The position numbers and the translations under genes are program-made. A DNA stretch of 64,000 bases, taken from Oceaniferula marina. Lineage in GTDB: Bacteria > Verrucomicrobiota > Verrucomicrobiia > Verrucomicrobiales > Akkermansiaceae. The notes under the pieces are model-generated. The model was not told the origin of the DNA. It saw only the letters and a list, made by a program, of their open reading frames with translations, and made no database searches. Positions 40,946 to 48,319 of the stretch are shown here, piece by piece. The DNA lies in NCBI RefSeq assembly GCF_013391475.1, contig NZ_JACBAZ010000001.1, positions 392,377 to 456,376 of the forward strand. The letters are read 5' to 3'. The first letter of the stretch is position 1, and the number at the start of each line of letters is the position of its first letter.

Positions 40946-40995
40946 ATTGGTTACGGGGGTAGGATTTGAACCTACGACCTTCAGGTTATGAGCCT
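40946..40995 (-). repeat. attL: displaced 3' half of tRNA-fMet (50-bp direct repeat)
   Basis: Fifty bases are identical to 48270-48319. They cover the tRNA from inside the 5' anticodon stem through the CAT anticodon, variable and T arms, the acceptor 3' strand and the CCA end. The 5' half is missing here (the sequence diverges at 40996), so this is a tRNA remnant and one end of the element. Confidence 0.92.
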
Positions 40996-41030
40996 TTAGT
41001 TCATCTTTATAAAATGAGACTAACATTCAG

Positions 41031-41052
41031 TCATGCAACACTTCATGCTAAC
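41031..41052 (+). repeat. Left copy of the 18-bp element repeat (putative integrase arm site)
   Basis: TCATGCAACACTTCATGC followed by TAAC. The same 18 bp is found at 48134-48151, with a 16-bp inverted copy at 48038-48053 and a related inverted copy at 45400-45422. Position between attL and the integrase start suits an arm-type binding site; this is inference. Confidence 0.6.
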
Positions 41053-41092
41053 AATTATTGCTATTGCAGGAAAATGCAGGTAAAAGAAAAGC

Positions 41093-42382
41093 ATGAGTGA
41101 ATCCAAAACAATTGAAAAAATCCCGCTTGATGGAATCAGCGAAAAAGGAATGACCATCAAGGAAAACACCTACAAAAAGAACGGAAAAACTTACTCAAAT
41201 TGGATTGTCCAAGGATGGCGAGAGAACGGGAAATGGCAGCGGAGGCAATTCAAAGAAGAAGCTGCCGCAAAACTGTTCAAAAATGACACTGAACGGCGTT
41301 TCATGAGTGCCGGGGCGAATCAAAGACTTCTTTCCACATCGCTTGACGAAATGCAGTTGCGGCATGCAGAAGCCGCTGTTGCTCAACTCGGGTCCACATA
41401 TACGCTACGAGACGCGGTGCGATTCTTTCTCGAAAACCACCGGGCACCGGATTTCACAATCCCCCTTCTGGACGGTATCAACAAATATCTTGGTGAATTG
41501 GAAAGCACTTTACGGGCAAACTCGATCAGGAGCCGCCGTAGCGTCCTGATGCAGCTTGAGGAATTCACCGGGGGCGTTGCGGTGCATGAAGTGACCACTG
41601 AGCAAATCAAAGCGTTTCTGAACGGTTTACGGGCAAAAGACGGAACCAAGGCCAAACGAAAGACTTGGAACAACTACCGAAATGACGTGAACCACTTCTT
41701 TTCTTGGGCTTGTGAAGAAGATTTGAACACAAACCGCCCTTGGAGCTTCACCAATCCATGCGCAAAAATCCCCATTTTCACGGCAAAACAAGTTGCGGAG
41801 CAACGCGCCAAACCATCGACAACGAGCGCGGCACGGGTGAAGCGTTCCATGTCATCGCTCATGAACTGGCGAGAAGGTTCCTTGATGAAGTTTTTTGCCT
41901 TGGCCTATTTTGCAGGAATCCGCCCGGATGGTGAGTTGCAGAAACTGGCAACACGGGAAAAAGAGCTAATCAACCTAAAAACCCGCACAATCCACATTCC
42001 CGCCGATATTTCAAAAACCAAGGAGGAACGAAACATTGATATTTCAGAAAACCTCATGCAATGGTTGAAGCTCTGCAAAGACAAGCCGATTGTTCCCACC
42101 AACTTTGACAGGCTTTGCAAACGTGCCCGGCGGAGCATGAAACTTGACAGGGACGAAACTCGGCACTCTTTCATTTCCTACCATGTCGCGCTAAATAGGT
42201 CTGTTGGCGATGCCGCGTTGCAAGCGGGTAACTCTGAAAGCATCATCAAGAAACACTACTTGCGCCTGCATACCCGTGAAGAAGGTGAGGCATTCTTTTC
42301 AATCGTTCCGGATGCGGAAAGGAAACGTGCGGTTTTCAGTGACCAGAAGCCACAAAAACAAGGTGCATTGAAAGTTATTTGA
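41093..42382 (+). CDS. int: Tyrosine-recombinase integrase of the island
   Basis: 429 residues. An N-terminal AP2/SAM-like DNA-binding part (about 120-230) precedes the catalytic domain. Box I Arg is in 'YFAGIRPDGELQKLA', the beta-hairpin Lys in ISKTKEERNI, box II has DETRHSFISYH and the C-terminal 'QAGNSESIIKKHYLRLHT' holds the nucleophile Tyr. The position usually occupied by His before Ser (GHS) is Asn here, and the first His of HxLRH is Asp; both occur in some phage-type relatives. It would recombine attP with the tRNA-fMet gene. It starts 97 bp inside attL and is followed by a terminator. Confidence 0.92.
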   Translation: MSESKTIEKIPLDGISEKGMTIKENTYKKNGKTYSNWIVQGWRENGKWQRRQFKEEAAAKLFKNDTERRFMSAGANQRLLSTSLDEMQLRHAEAAVAQLGSTYTLRDAVRFFLENHRAPDFTIPLLDGINKYLGELESTLRANSIRSRRSVLMQLEEFTGGVAVHEVTTEQIKAFLNGLRAKDGTKAKRKTWNNYRNDVNHFFSWACEEDLNTNRPWSFTNPCAKIPIFTAKQVAEQRAKPSTTSAARVKRSMSSLMNWREGSLMKFFALAYFAGIRPDGELQKLATREKELINLKTRTIHIPADISKTKEERNIDISENLMQWLKLCKDKPIVPTNFDRLCKRARRSMKLDRDETRHSFISYHVALNRSVGDAALQAGNSESIIKKHYLRLHTREEGEAFFSIVPDAERKRAVFSDQKPQKQGALKVI

Positions 42383-42408
42383 AACTTTTTTTGCTATGTT
42401 TTAACGGT

Positions 42409-42423
42409 GAACAATATCTGTTC
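42409..42423. promoter_or_regulatory. Operator-like dyad 1 after the integrase gene
   Basis: GAACA-ATATC-TGTTC is a 5-bp inverted repeat with 5-bp spacer. Its left flank ACGGTGAACAA also occurs, inverted, at dyad 2 (42479-42495). The pair probably marks binding of one dimeric protein; no cI-like repressor is visible in the island, so the AlpA-like protein or a helper-phage protein could be the binder. Confidence 0.5.
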
Positions 42424-42432
42424 TAAGTCCCC

Positions 42433-42465
42433 GCCCCGCGTCCTGCAAAGGTTACGGGGCTTTTT
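42433..42465 (+). terminator. Rho-independent terminator after the integrase gene
   Basis: GCCCCG and CGGGGC form a 6-bp GC stem followed by TTTTTG. It lies between the two operator-like dyads. Confidence 0.7.
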
Positions 42466-42478
42466 GTTTTTTTAGCCA

Positions 42479-42495
42479 TGAACACAATTTGTTCA
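42479..42495. promoter_or_regulatory. Operator-like dyad 2
   Basis: TGAACA-CAATT-TGTTCA is a perfect 6-bp inverted repeat with 5-bp spacer. It shares the 11-base stretch ACGGTGAACAA with dyad 1 in opposite orientation. Confidence 0.5.
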
Positions 42496-42545
42496 CCGTC
42501 AAAGAATATATTGCACGTAGTCTCAAACCATTGCATTATCGTGCT

Positions 42546-42569
42546 AACGGTCAGCGGAAATTGACCGTT
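42546..42569. repeat. 8-bp inverted repeat in the int-alpA intergenic region
   Basis: AACGGTCA, an 8-nt loop and TGACCGTT form a perfect stem with no T-run, so it is more likely a protein-binding dyad than a terminator. Confidence 0.45.
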
Positions 42570-42621
42570 TAATAAGCAAGATTTTCGCTAGGATGATTGC
42601 CTGACACCTTTCAACCGAAAA

Positions 42622-42702
42622 GAATAATAGATTTAGTTCCCCTTGGGGAAACGAGTAACGCCGCAAGCGTGTGTCATTGGAAAAACTAAAAAACTATTAT
42701 TC
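42622..42702 (+). ncRNA. Structured leader (three-way-junction-like) ahead of the AlpA-like gene
   Basis: Outer helix GAATAATAG/CTATTATTC (42622-42630 with 42694-42702, 9 bp), second helix TTTAGTT/AACTAAA (42632-42638 with 42684-42690), and two inner hairpins CCC-CTTG-GGG (42639-42648) and ACGC-CGCAA-GCGT (42658-42670). The outer 3' strand ends two bases before the ATG of the AlpA-like gene, so folding would mask its start region. I do not recognise the fold as a known riboswitch. Confidence 0.45.
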
Positions 42703-42704
42703 CG

Positions 42705-47344: not shown

Positions 47345-47349
47345 AATCA

Positions 47350-47607
47350 ATGCCTCTCTACGGATCAAAAGACTTCCACCCCTATGCCGCCAAAAACCAT
47401 CTTGAAGCGGCAAAGGCGTTTGCACGGGGGTTGCTCAAGGCGGACGGGTCAACACTAACGCCGGGTGATTTCATATTGACCGGACAAACAAGCAACGCGC
47501 TCGGGGGCATTACCTATCATTTCAAATACAGCTTGCTTGATGCCTTGGGCGGGATCACGGCACAACGTCAAATCGACGTAATACACTATCACAGAATCAG
47601 GGATTGA
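47350..47607 (+). CDS. Island protein of unknown function, paralog family member 4
   Basis: 85 residues. 'YGSKDFHPYAAKNHLEAAKA' followed by FARGLL is the fourth copy of the family unit, and 'TYHFKYSLLDALGGITAQRQ' the C-terminal half. It lies 5 bp after member 3 and before a strong terminator that closes the operon. Function unknown. Confidence 0.65.
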   Translation: MPLYGSKDFHPYAAKNHLEAAKAFARGLLKADGSTLTPGDFILTGQTSNALGGITYHFKYSLLDALGGITAQRQIDVIHYHRIRD

Positions 47608-47628
47608 AACATTTGTGGCCATAGATAG

Positions 47629-47672
47629 CCCCCGGTCATCGTCTTATTGCAGCGGTGGCCGGGGGTGTTTTG
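47629..47672 (+). terminator. Rho-independent terminator after the paralog operon
   Basis: CCCCCGG pairs with CCGGGGG, extended by CA/TG and CG/CG pairs, followed by TGTTTT. Confidence 0.8.
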
Positions 47673-47713
47673 TCTTGTAGTTATTTTGATAGAGCGTTAG
47701 CTATTCTAGCGTC

Positions 47714-47986
47714 ATGAAATTATTAGCAGTATTATTAGGCCTTCTCTCAGTTCCAGTAGCATTCTATGGGGTTTCATCACTTACTCAGGCAACCGAAGGC
47801 GTTGGCATAATTGGGTTTGCTGCGGTGATTGGAATAGTTTCCCGCCTTTGCCAAGCTGAAGCCAATTACGAAAGCGAGAAAAAGCAAAGGGAAGTTATCC
47901 AAGATGAGATTGAGAAATCTCATGTCAAAACGATTCAATACTACGATTCTGTGTATCGGAATCTTGTGACAAACAAGAAACAATAA
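47714..47986 (+). CDS. Small two-helix membrane protein of the island
   Basis: 90 residues. Two hydrophobic helices (about 2-20, LLAVLLGLLSVPVAFYGV, and 30-46, GVGIIGFAAVIGIV) are followed by a charged, probably coiled helix (YESEKKQREVIQDEIEKSH). The shape is holin-like but also fits phage superinfection or defence membrane proteins. It follows a terminator, so it has its own promoter. Function unknown. Confidence 0.6.
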   Translation: MKLLAVLLGLLSVPVAFYGVSSLTQATEGVGIIGFAAVIGIVSRLCQAEANYESEKKQREVIQDEIEKSHVKTIQYYDSVYRNLVTNKKQ

Positions 47987-48037
47987 GCAGAATCACAGCA
48001 AAAACCCTCTTAGTTCCTATTTTGGGTTTTTCATGCA

Positions 48038-48053
48038 ATGAAGTGTTGCATGA
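48038..48053 (-). repeat. Right-end inverted copy of the island repeat
   Basis: ATGAAGTGTTGCATGA is the reverse complement of the first 16 bp of TCATGCAACACTTCATGC. With the direct copy at 48134-48151 it forms a large inverted repeat flanking a terminator. Confidence 0.6.
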
Positions 48054-48097
48054 AGATATGCAGTCAACTCCAGTCTGATTCAAACCATCCCCCAACA

Positions 48098-48134
48098 CCC
48101 CGCCCTTGATTTATCAACAAATGGCGGGGTTTTT
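48098..48134 (+). terminator. Rho-independent terminator at the island's right end
   Basis: CCCCGCC and GGCGGGG form a 7-bp GC stem followed by five T. It stops plus-strand transcription before it reaches the tRNA gene. Confidence 0.8.
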
Positions 48135-48151
48135 CATGCAACACTTCATGC
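48134..48151 (+). repeat. Right-end direct copy of the island repeat (putative arm site)
   Basis: TCATGCAACACTTCATGC is identical to the left-end copy at 41031-41048. The two are in the same orientation, one near each att site. Confidence 0.65.
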
Positions 48152-48233
48152 AATAAAACCTTCAAAACACCCCATTTTATATCATTTCCCTGCATTTTTC
48201 ACACTTTTCAAAATAGGCAAAAACACACAAAGA

Positions 48234-48266
48234 AAAACGCTGTAAGCCTTTGACTTACAGCGTTTT
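48234..48266 (-). terminator. Island-borne terminator for tRNA-fMet
   Basis: AAAACGCTGTAAG and CTTACAGCGTTTT form a perfect 13-bp stem with a 7-nt loop; on the minus strand T residues follow. It lies 5 bp past the tRNA CCA end and is unrelated in sequence to the ancestral terminator at 40903. Confidence 0.85.
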
Positions 48267-48269
48267 AAG

Positions 48270-48319
48270 ATTGGTTACGGGGGTAGGATTTGAACCTACG
48301 ACCTTCAGGTTATGAGCCT
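48270..48319 (-). repeat. attR: 50-bp direct repeat inside the intact tRNA-fMet
   Basis: Identical to 40946-40995. It supplies the 3' half of the functional tRNA, so the island restores the gene it enters. Confidence 0.92.

What the first reader, a model, noticed from the sequence alone, without database searches (positions are those of the whole stretch)
40946..48319. PICI-like phage satellite in a Verrucomicrobiota-type genome
Seen: a 7.4-kb element bounded by 50-bp direct repeats of tRNA-fMet, with integrase, AlpA-like protein, primase-helicase and TerS-like genes but no structural, portal, lysis or large-terminase genes. Known: this gene set defines Gram-negative phage-inducible chromosomal islands. 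Inferred: it depends on a helper phage for packaging. I know of no such satellite described in this phylum, but cannot check this.
Basis: partly seen in the sequence, partly recalled or inferred. Interest (0 to 1): 0.8.

Follow-up and report, generated by a model that had tools for sequence, protein, structure and literature searches.

The report
Phage-satellite-like island in a Verrucomicrobiota genome
A small genetic island inserted in a tRNA gene carries the genes to cut itself out, copy itself and mark its DNA for packing into a phage, but none to build a phage, so it probably travels inside particles made by another phage; relatives sit in many Verrucomicrobiota genomes.

Summary
In detail: a 7.4-kb element lies between two identical 50-bp copies of the tRNA-fMet 3' end. 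It carries a tyrosine integrase, an excisionase-fold (AlpA-like) protein, a BT4734/DUF5906 primase-helicase and a true small-terminase (TerS) gene, and no recognisable particle gene. I add a second, tail-less TerS paralogue, four 18-bp repeats found only inside the element, and a family: relatives with 44-59% identical integrases lie in tRNA-fMet, Glu, His and Arg genes of Verrucomicrobiota, including the isolate Rubritalea marina. Of nine elements with both ends found, five carry TerS; none showed a structural gene among the proteins scanned (not all were), and some carry anti-phage genes. In the three phages I opened, the related TerS precedes large terminase and portal, and shares the C-terminal tail but little of the DNA-binding half. 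The host genome gave no hit to two TerL families and one capsid family. Best reading: a satellite that works like a PICI, laid out like a PICMI, packaged by an infecting helper phage. Excision, induction and packaging are untested. A new variant of a known kind, in a phylum where my paper searches found none described.

The parts
40946..40995 (-). attL: 50-bp displaced copy of the tRNA-fMet 3' end
   Evidence: direct repeat, 100% identical to 48270-48319; only second match to the tRNA in the own genome
40915..40940 (-). terminator-like hairpin just outside attL, likely the original tRNA terminator
   Evidence: consensus scan; the region as a whole has 7 such sites against 9.8 in shuffles
41031..41048 (+). 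18-bp sub-terminal repeat (possible integrase/excisionase arm site)
   Evidence: 4 matches in 64 kb, all inside the element, 0.07 expected
41093..42382 (+). tyrosine integrase, 429 aa
   Evidence: Pfam Phage_int_SAM_5 9.5e-6, Phage_integrase 0.0059 (below cut-off); alignment with 13 relatives
42705..42932 (+). AlpA-like / excisionase-fold winged-helix protein, 75 aa
   Evidence: family of 13 aligned; model pLDDT 77; 7 of the top 10 second-look rows are excisionases, Z 5.2-6.1; Foldseek best E 0.28; no Pfam hit itself
43033..45246 (+). primase-helicase, 737 aa: BT4734-like N domain plus DUF5906-type helicase
   Evidence: PF08800 2.1e-23, PF19263 1.2e-5 (26.3 bits, cut-off 27.6); phrog_18375 primase/helicase 4.7e-17
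45403..45420 (-). 18-bp repeat, inner copy (2 mismatches)
45481..45924 (-). TerS, 147 aa, with C-terminal GGVMLVP...W...Q..L tail
   Evidence: Terminase_2 4.8e-6 above cut-off; phrog_5334 6.1e-10; profile with homologues matches solved TerS 3zqp 1.1e-8; Foldseek ranks 1-10: eight titled small terminase, two a Bacillus phage protein; best E 0.01, none at 0.001 or below
45968..46285 (-). second TerS-like protein, 105 aa, lacks the C-terminal tail
   Evidence: 29% identical to TerS over 93 aa, E 3.9e-7 in a comparison of nine proteins; E 0.0056 in the own genome; phrog_51 only 0.038
46338..46868 (+). small ORF 176 aa, unknown; first of four weakly similar ORFs
46872..47126 (+). small ORF 84 aa, unknown
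47126..47344 (+). small ORF 72 aa, unknown
47350..47607 (+). small ORF 85 aa, unknown
47714..47986 (+). small ORF 90 aa, hydrophobic N-terminus (by eye), unknown
48036..48053 (-). 18-bp repeat (2 mismatches)
48134..48151 (+). 18-bp repeat, identical to 41031-41048
48234..48266 (-). element-borne terminator-like hairpin after the intact tRNA, resembling the hairpin after fMet in some same-genus relatives
48270..48319 (-). attR: 50-bp repeat within the intact tRNA-fMet
48272..48348 (-). intact tRNA-fMet (attachment gene)

Best explanation
It is an integrated phage satellite that works like a PICI. Shown: it sits in tRNA-fMet between perfect 50-bp duplications; it encodes an integrase, an excisionase-fold protein, a primase-helicase and a genuine TerS; no other particle gene was recognised in it. 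Inferred: when a helper phage infects, the excisionase-like protein and integrase excise it as a circle, the primase-helicase copies it, and its own TerS recognises its DNA while its conserved tail docks on the helper's large terminase, so satellite DNA is loaded into helper heads. Injected into a new cell, the integrase puts it back into tRNA-fMet, whose 3' end and terminator the element restores. The host genome gave no hit to two TerL families and one HK97-type capsid family, so the helper is more likely an infecting phage than a resident prophage.
For: Perfect att repeats in tRNA-fMet. TerS by Pfam, PHROGs, PDB profile and, weakly, fold. Three annotated phage relatives that I opened have TerS directly upstream of TerL and portal. 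The TerS tail GGVM-VP is invariant across the seven sequences aligned, including these three phages, while the N-terminal half is much less conserved; 9 of the 20 listed phage hits match only from residue 65 on (H12-H20). Family: 23 loci at 44-59% integrase identity among the 80 kept of 164 found. Nine elements have both ends: window, L114, L117, L113, L072, G022, L120, L132, L124, in fMet (6), Glu, His and Arg; the eight other than G022 span 4.9-9.7 kb, G022 about 21 kb. TerS in 5 of 9 (window; the rest, with PHROGs support), and in three more loci whose ends were not found (L116, L119, L128). Apart from TerS, no packaging or structural family among the families shown for the proteins of these nine that were scanned. 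Sub-terminal repeats near both ends in the window and in L114, L117 and L124. No hit of two TerL families and one capsid family in the own genome. AbiEii in the L113 element.
Against: No excision, circular form, induction or packaging was observed. Four of the nine elements lack a detectable TerS. The window's excisionase-like protein has no Pfam hit, and its best Foldseek E is only 0.28. No repressor of the Stl/cI kind was recognised in the window element; L114, L117 and L113 have mutually similar small ORFs near the tRNA end that read as HTH proteins. No helper was identified. The two PHROGs scans of pooled proteins show only the first 25 of 32 and 25 of 47 families, and some proteins of the nine elements were not scanned against PHROGs (L072 344 and 323 aa, L132 614 and 358 aa, several of G022). 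PF03237 as a TerL test may miss divergent TerLs. The sub-terminal repeats of relatives were found without a shuffled control, and L113, L072 and L132 gave none.
Confidence: 0.75

Rival explanations
1. Remnant of a prophage that lost its structural genes and kept int, replication and TerS.
For: TerS and primase-helicase relatives occur in true phages. The two IMG/VR contigs found through its TerS and AlpA-like protein (L111, L245) encode TerL-like proteins by my reading.
Against: Perfect 50-bp repeats and open genes. Relatives down to 44% integrase identity keep a compact plan without recognised particle genes while their TerS types differ, which repeated decay would not predict. PF03237 hit only 2 of 13 genomes that host relatives: in G111 on another contig than the element; in G393 I could not map the hits to the contig of L115.
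Confidence: 0.1
2. A defence or stability island that does not travel in phage heads: the TerS-like proteins are regulators or decoys that poison the terminase of invading phages.
For: AbiEii in L113; methyltransferase, helicase and reverse-transcriptase-like proteins in G022; GHKL-ATPase-like ORFs beside TerS in L117 and L083 (my motif reading; no family hit, PADLOC none). The second TerS-like protein lacks the tail, as a decoy might.
Against: The excisionase-fold gene, primase-helicase, perfect att sites and sub-terminal repeats point to a mobile, replicating element. Known satellites also carry defence genes (PMC11389934, passages), so this is not exclusive.
Confidence: 0.1
3. An integrative mobilizable element moved by conjugation, with TerS-like HTH proteins of other function.
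For: Some relatives with the same integrase have no detected TerS, and one is about 21 kb with cargo.
Against: No relaxase or mobilisation family among the hits to the ten window proteins, and a tail shared with phage TerS.
Confidence: 0.05

Closest known systems
Gram-negative PICI (phage-inducible chromosomal islands)
   Different: Integrase family in which the positions of the usual HxxR and GH histidines read D and N (motifs recalled); primase is BT4734/DUF5906; a second tail-less TerS paralogue is present; helper and induction unknown
PICMI (Vibrionaceae minimalist islands; PMC10803314, passages read)
   Same: int - alpA - primase order with DUF5906-type primase; in relative L114 a gene overlaps int by 4 nt, then AlpA-like, one gene, primase, as described for PICMI with iolg and up1
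   Different: The PICMI prototype lies downstream of fis and no terS homologue was found in it; this lies in tRNA-fMet, has TerS, and the window itself has no gene between int and the excisionase gene
Tycheposons and VEIMEs (named in PMC11389934, passages; details recalled)
   Same: tRNA-site elements proposed to travel in virions (recalled)
   Different: Other phyla (recalled); no homology test was made here

Membership tests
PICI (Gram-negative type) | Integrase and att repeats at a tRNA or other site | tested here: met
PICI (Gram-negative type) | AlpA-type regulator/excisionase | tested here: inconclusive
   excisionase-like fold (Z under 8, other wing-helix proteins score 4-5) and weak HTH_17 in 3 of 13 homologues, best 0.0085; none in the window protein
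PICI (Gram-negative type) | Primase-replication protein | tested here: met
PICI (Gram-negative type) | Own TerS without TerL | tested here: met
   TerS; no TerL among the ten element proteins; no PF03237 or PF03354 hit in the own genome
PICI (Gram-negative type) | No capsid, portal, tail or lysis genes | tested here: met
   ten element proteins, three libraries; small unknown ORFs remain
PICI (Gram-negative type) | Induced and packaged by a helper phage | not testable with these tools
   no reads or cultures
PICMI | int, AlpA (PF05930/PF12728) and primase (PF13148 or PF19263) together | tested here: inconclusive
   int present; AlpA models not hit by the window protein; PF19263 at 26.3 bits, just under its 27.6 cut-off
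PICMI | Located downstream of fis (mandatory in one passage of the paper, optional in another) | tested here: not met
   sits in tRNA-fMet; model as
Capsid-forming PICI | Own capsid and head genes | tested here: not met
Prophage | TerL, portal, capsid | tested here: not met
   for the element; for the own genome

The most novel reading that the evidence does not exclude
A Verrucomicrobiota-wide satellite family that swaps small-terminase modules on a fixed integrase-excisionase chassis to follow different helper phages, and that uses paired TerS paralogues (two in the window, L116 and L119): one docks on the helper's TerL and loads satellite DNA, while the tail-less or divergent partner spoils the helper's own packaging.
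Probability: 0.15. Interest if true: 0.75.

Novelty: new variant of a known kind. Interest (0 to 1): 0.52.

Why it matters
If it moves as proposed, TerS-based packaging piracy extends to a phylum where my paper searches found no described satellite, and a cultured strain, Rubritalea marina DSM 17716, carries a testable relative. The int-excisionase-TerS set gives a search model for satellites outside the well-sampled phyla. The different TerS types on one integrase backbone would make helper-switching measurable.

Tried and rejected
Empty site with identical flanks: the gene left of the element searched in 58 genomes gave its best other-genome hit at 57% in G012 on contig C53, while the fMet gene of G012 is on C21, so no syntenic empty site was shown. 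Of the 13 same-genus relatives searched, 12 have a tRNA-fMet match and 10 of these have only one copy. None of the six fMet loci examined (G009, G013, G008, G012, G006, G003) has an element-like ORF within 3.5 kb downstream, but in G013 only about 120 bases lie before the contig end. Two have a second tRNA piece: G009, with a different insert between, and G013, where both pieces lie at contig ends.

IMG/VR: scans with TerS, integrase alignment, excisionase alignment and primase gave one, twenty, one and no relatives; no circular packaged form was found. The single close integrase there (L201, 48%) is on a 19.5-kb contig of which 11.4 kb is held; three of its large ORFs had no PHROGs hit at 0.01.

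The 8.3-kb human faecal phage record MT836914 matches the primase N-terminal half at about 27% and was not used as evidence (see Noticed in passing). The order-wide TerS search matched 33 of 386 genomes; beyond the four element TerS of the top rows, the listed matches do not reach the tail, except one at model positions 98-142. In L220, L221 and L224 a long ORF with a terminase-like opening lies beside the hit by eye, but the phmmer comparison with four TerLs and two portals found nothing, so no helper is claimed. In the fold second look other wing-helix proteins score Z 4-5, so the excisionase call rests on fold plus context. PDB sequence searches of the excisionase family and of the primase gave nothing usable. 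My HMM was built partly from L114, L117, L132 and L124, which therefore match by construction; L116, L119 and L128 did not enter it. L124 also gave a weak second match (8273-8869) that on reading is not TerS-like over its length. L131 gave no integrase ORF in my ORF caller and was left out of the tree and of the content listing.

The integrase tree (24 rows) has only 6 of 21 inner branches well supported, so no transfer history is read from it.
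Full report
Observation. Two identical 50-bp repeats, starts 7,324 bp apart, bound the element. The right one is the 3' part of tRNA-Met(CAT) 48272-48348, minus strand, with C1 opposite A72 as in initiators (read; hallmark recalled). In the own genome (5.07 Mb, 97% complete) this gene and the 3' copy are the only matches. A terminator-like hairpin lies outside attL, and another, inside the element, follows the intact tRNA. The inner one resembles the hairpins that follow tRNA-fMet in same-genus genomes, best in L087 and L084. So the element restores both the tRNA end and a terminator; that the outer one is the original is inference.

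Genes. Integrase (429 aa): N-terminal SAM-like domains at 9.5e-6 and a catalytic domain below cut-off. In the 14 aligned rows R277, K308, R357 and Y389 are invariant, while the positions of the two usual histidines read D354 and N380, also invariant (motif positions recalled). Excisionase-like protein (75 aa): no Pfam hit, but a conserved family with a winged-helix model (pLDDT 77). In the second-look alignment 7 of the top 10 rows are excisionases by title (Z 5.2-6.1), while Foldseek alone gave E 0.28 or worse. Primase-helicase (737 aa): BT4734-like N domain 2.1e-23 and DUF5906 1.2e-5, just under its cut-off. TerS (147 aa): Terminase_2 above cut-off, phrog_5334 6.1e-10, and a profile with homologues matched solved TerS 3zqp at 1.1e-8. 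For its model (mean pLDDT 70; N-terminal helices confident, linker not) eight of Foldseek ranks 1-10 are titled small terminase and two a Bacillus phage protein; best E 0.01, none at 0.001 or below. A second TerS-like ORF (105 aa) beside it is 29% identical over 93 aa (E 0.0056 against the own genome) and lacks the tail. Four small ORFs, 46338-47607, are weakly similar to each other and have no family.

How the TerS reads. Three phage relatives (PSASB_03, Bhz54, KS_W4) have this gene immediately before TerL and portal. Across seven aligned sequences, four from Verrucomicrobiota elements and three from phages, the invariant block is the C-terminal GGVM-VP...W...Q..L, with little invariant in the N-terminal half. 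Of the 48 phage records matched at 0.01, 20 were listed, and 9 of these match only from residue 65 on. In known terminases the C-terminal part contacts the motor and the N-terminal part DNA (recalled). A satellite TerS that keeps the docking tail and changes the DNA reader is what packaging piracy needs. This is inference from sequence.

Family. The integrase search in 142 genomes gave a match in 86; 13 loci in 12 other genomes align over most of the length at 44-57%. The named-genome scan kept 80 of 164 relatives, the first 23 (L112-L134) at 44-59% and the rest at 32-38%. All 80 titles name Verrucomicrobiota or a group within it except L115, a Robiginitomaculum bin. Several contigs were fetched twice, once unnamed and once named, with 100% identical proteins: L066 and L113, L067 and L114, L069 and L117, L073 and L120, L077 and L132. 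Nine elements have both ends: window; L114 (7.7 kb), L117 (9.6), L113 (9.7), L072 (4.9) and G022 (about 21), all in tRNA-fMet; L120 (8.4) in tRNA-Glu; L132 (7.6) in tRNA-His; L124 (7.9) in tRNA-Arg. For G022 the ends come from the intact tRNA and a BLAST match to its 3' part, so a tandem of two elements is not excluded. The others are cut by contig ends or ends were not found.

Order. L114 reads int, a 229-aa gene overlapping int by 4 nt, AlpA-like, a 169-aa gene, primase-helicase, TerS. This is the PICMI order (PMC10803314, passages) plus TerS. The window has int, AlpA-like, primase, then TerS and its paralogue on the other strand.

TerS census. TerS in 5 of the 9: window, L114, L117, L132, L124 (for L114 the evidence is 59% identity to the window TerS). 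None was found in L113, L072, L120, G022. Three loci without found ends also have TerS-like ORFs: L116 (two adjacent copies), L119 (two) and L128; one protein of the pooled scan matched a TerS family at 3.6e-16, its identity not told. L116 and L119 copies and L128 are most like each other and share a tail unlike that of the window TerS (by eye for the tail). Thus pairs of TerS paralogues recur in window, L116 and L119.

Absence of particle genes. Scans of pooled proteins showed no head, portal, tail or lysis family except TerS among the families listed: 33 proteins of the delimited elements, 25 of 32 families shown; 40 large ORFs downstream of integrases without found ends, 25 of 47 shown (chosen from the 51 listed); further proteins. 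Not every protein of the nine was scanned against PHROGs: L072 (344 and 323 aa), L132 (614 and 358 aa) and several of G022 were not. One tail-protein hit (phrog_20500, 6.4e-13) came from a protein of L116 that matches chromosome-condensation-regulator families far better; L116 has no known right end. The own genome has no PF03237, PF03354 or PF05065 hit. PF03237 hit 2 of 13 genomes that host relatives: G111, on another contig than its element, and G393, host of L115, where I could not map the hits to its contig. This suggests infecting rather than resident helpers, within the limits of those models.

Cargo. AbiEii in L113; methyltransferase, helicase and reverse-transcriptase-like proteins in G022. 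L083, with a distant integrase (26%), carries a primase-helicase, TerS and a GHKL-like ORF by my motif reading. Anti-phage cargo is common in satellites (PMC11389934, passages). PADLOC found nothing in the window's 176-aa ORF or in the two GHKL-like ORFs; the other window ORFs were not given to it.

Ends. TCATGCAACACTTCATGC occurs four times in 64 kb (0-2 mismatches), all inside the element: near both ends and beside TerS; 0.07 expected. Repeats of other sequence lie about 30-60 bp inside the left and 110-125 bp inside the right end in L114, L117 and L124 (window 36 and 135); L120 has a weaker pair; L113, L072 and L132 gave none; no shuffled control was run for the relatives. Arm-type integrase or excisionase sites are the likely reading (inference).

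Literature. Searches for phage satellite with Verrucomicrobi-, satellite/PICI/Akkermansia, PICI with Verrucomicrob- and Akkermansia/prophage/integrative/satellite listed 11 papers, none with a title on such a satellite; I read passages of one of them (PMC10924106), which excluded satellites from its analysis. Searches added nothing on this phylum in their listings. The SatelliteFinder paper is not held, so a prior computational hit in this phylum cannot be excluded.

Verdict. A real, probably mobile satellite-like island of a Verrucomicrobiota family; mechanism inferred from anatomy; packaging untested.

Noticed in passing
L098 (G009:C22, about 77775-85355): A same-genus genome has a different 7.5-kb insert in tRNA-fMet, flanked by a 26-bp tRNA 3' copy, with 1077-aa and 640-aa ORFs and no homologue of this integrase.
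   Followed up: partly
L083 (G111:C157, 9120-17525): A second satellite-like cluster with a distant integrase, primase-helicase, TerS with the same tail and a GHKL-like ORF; its lipoprotein-like ORF resembles one in L117 by eye.
   Followed up: partly
L244 (phage record MT836914, 8287 bases, human faeces): By eye it reads int, a small HTH protein and a BT4734-type primase (27% to the window primase) in 8.3 kb without evident particle genes, so it may be a comparable satellite of another gut bacterium.
   Followed up: partly
window 46338-47607: Four consecutive small ORFs share a weak motif near the N-terminus (A...EA) and may be tandem duplicates of an unknown gene.
   Followed up: partly
L101/L068 (G022:C3, 99548-120450): A stretch of about 21 kb in tRNA-fMet with a related integrase carries methyltransferase, helicase and reverse-transcriptase-like proteins, like a defence island.
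   Followed up: partly
window 25766-37734: A cluster of sulfatase-like, sialidase-like and beta-helix-like ORFs suggests a polysaccharide-degradation locus (read by eye).
   Followed up: no
A2 integrase alignment: This integrase family has D and N at the positions of the two usual active-site histidines, invariant in 14 of 14 rows.
   Followed up: no
L113 9443-9527: A decayed second tRNA-fMet-like piece beside attL hints at an earlier insertion at the same site.
   Followed up: no
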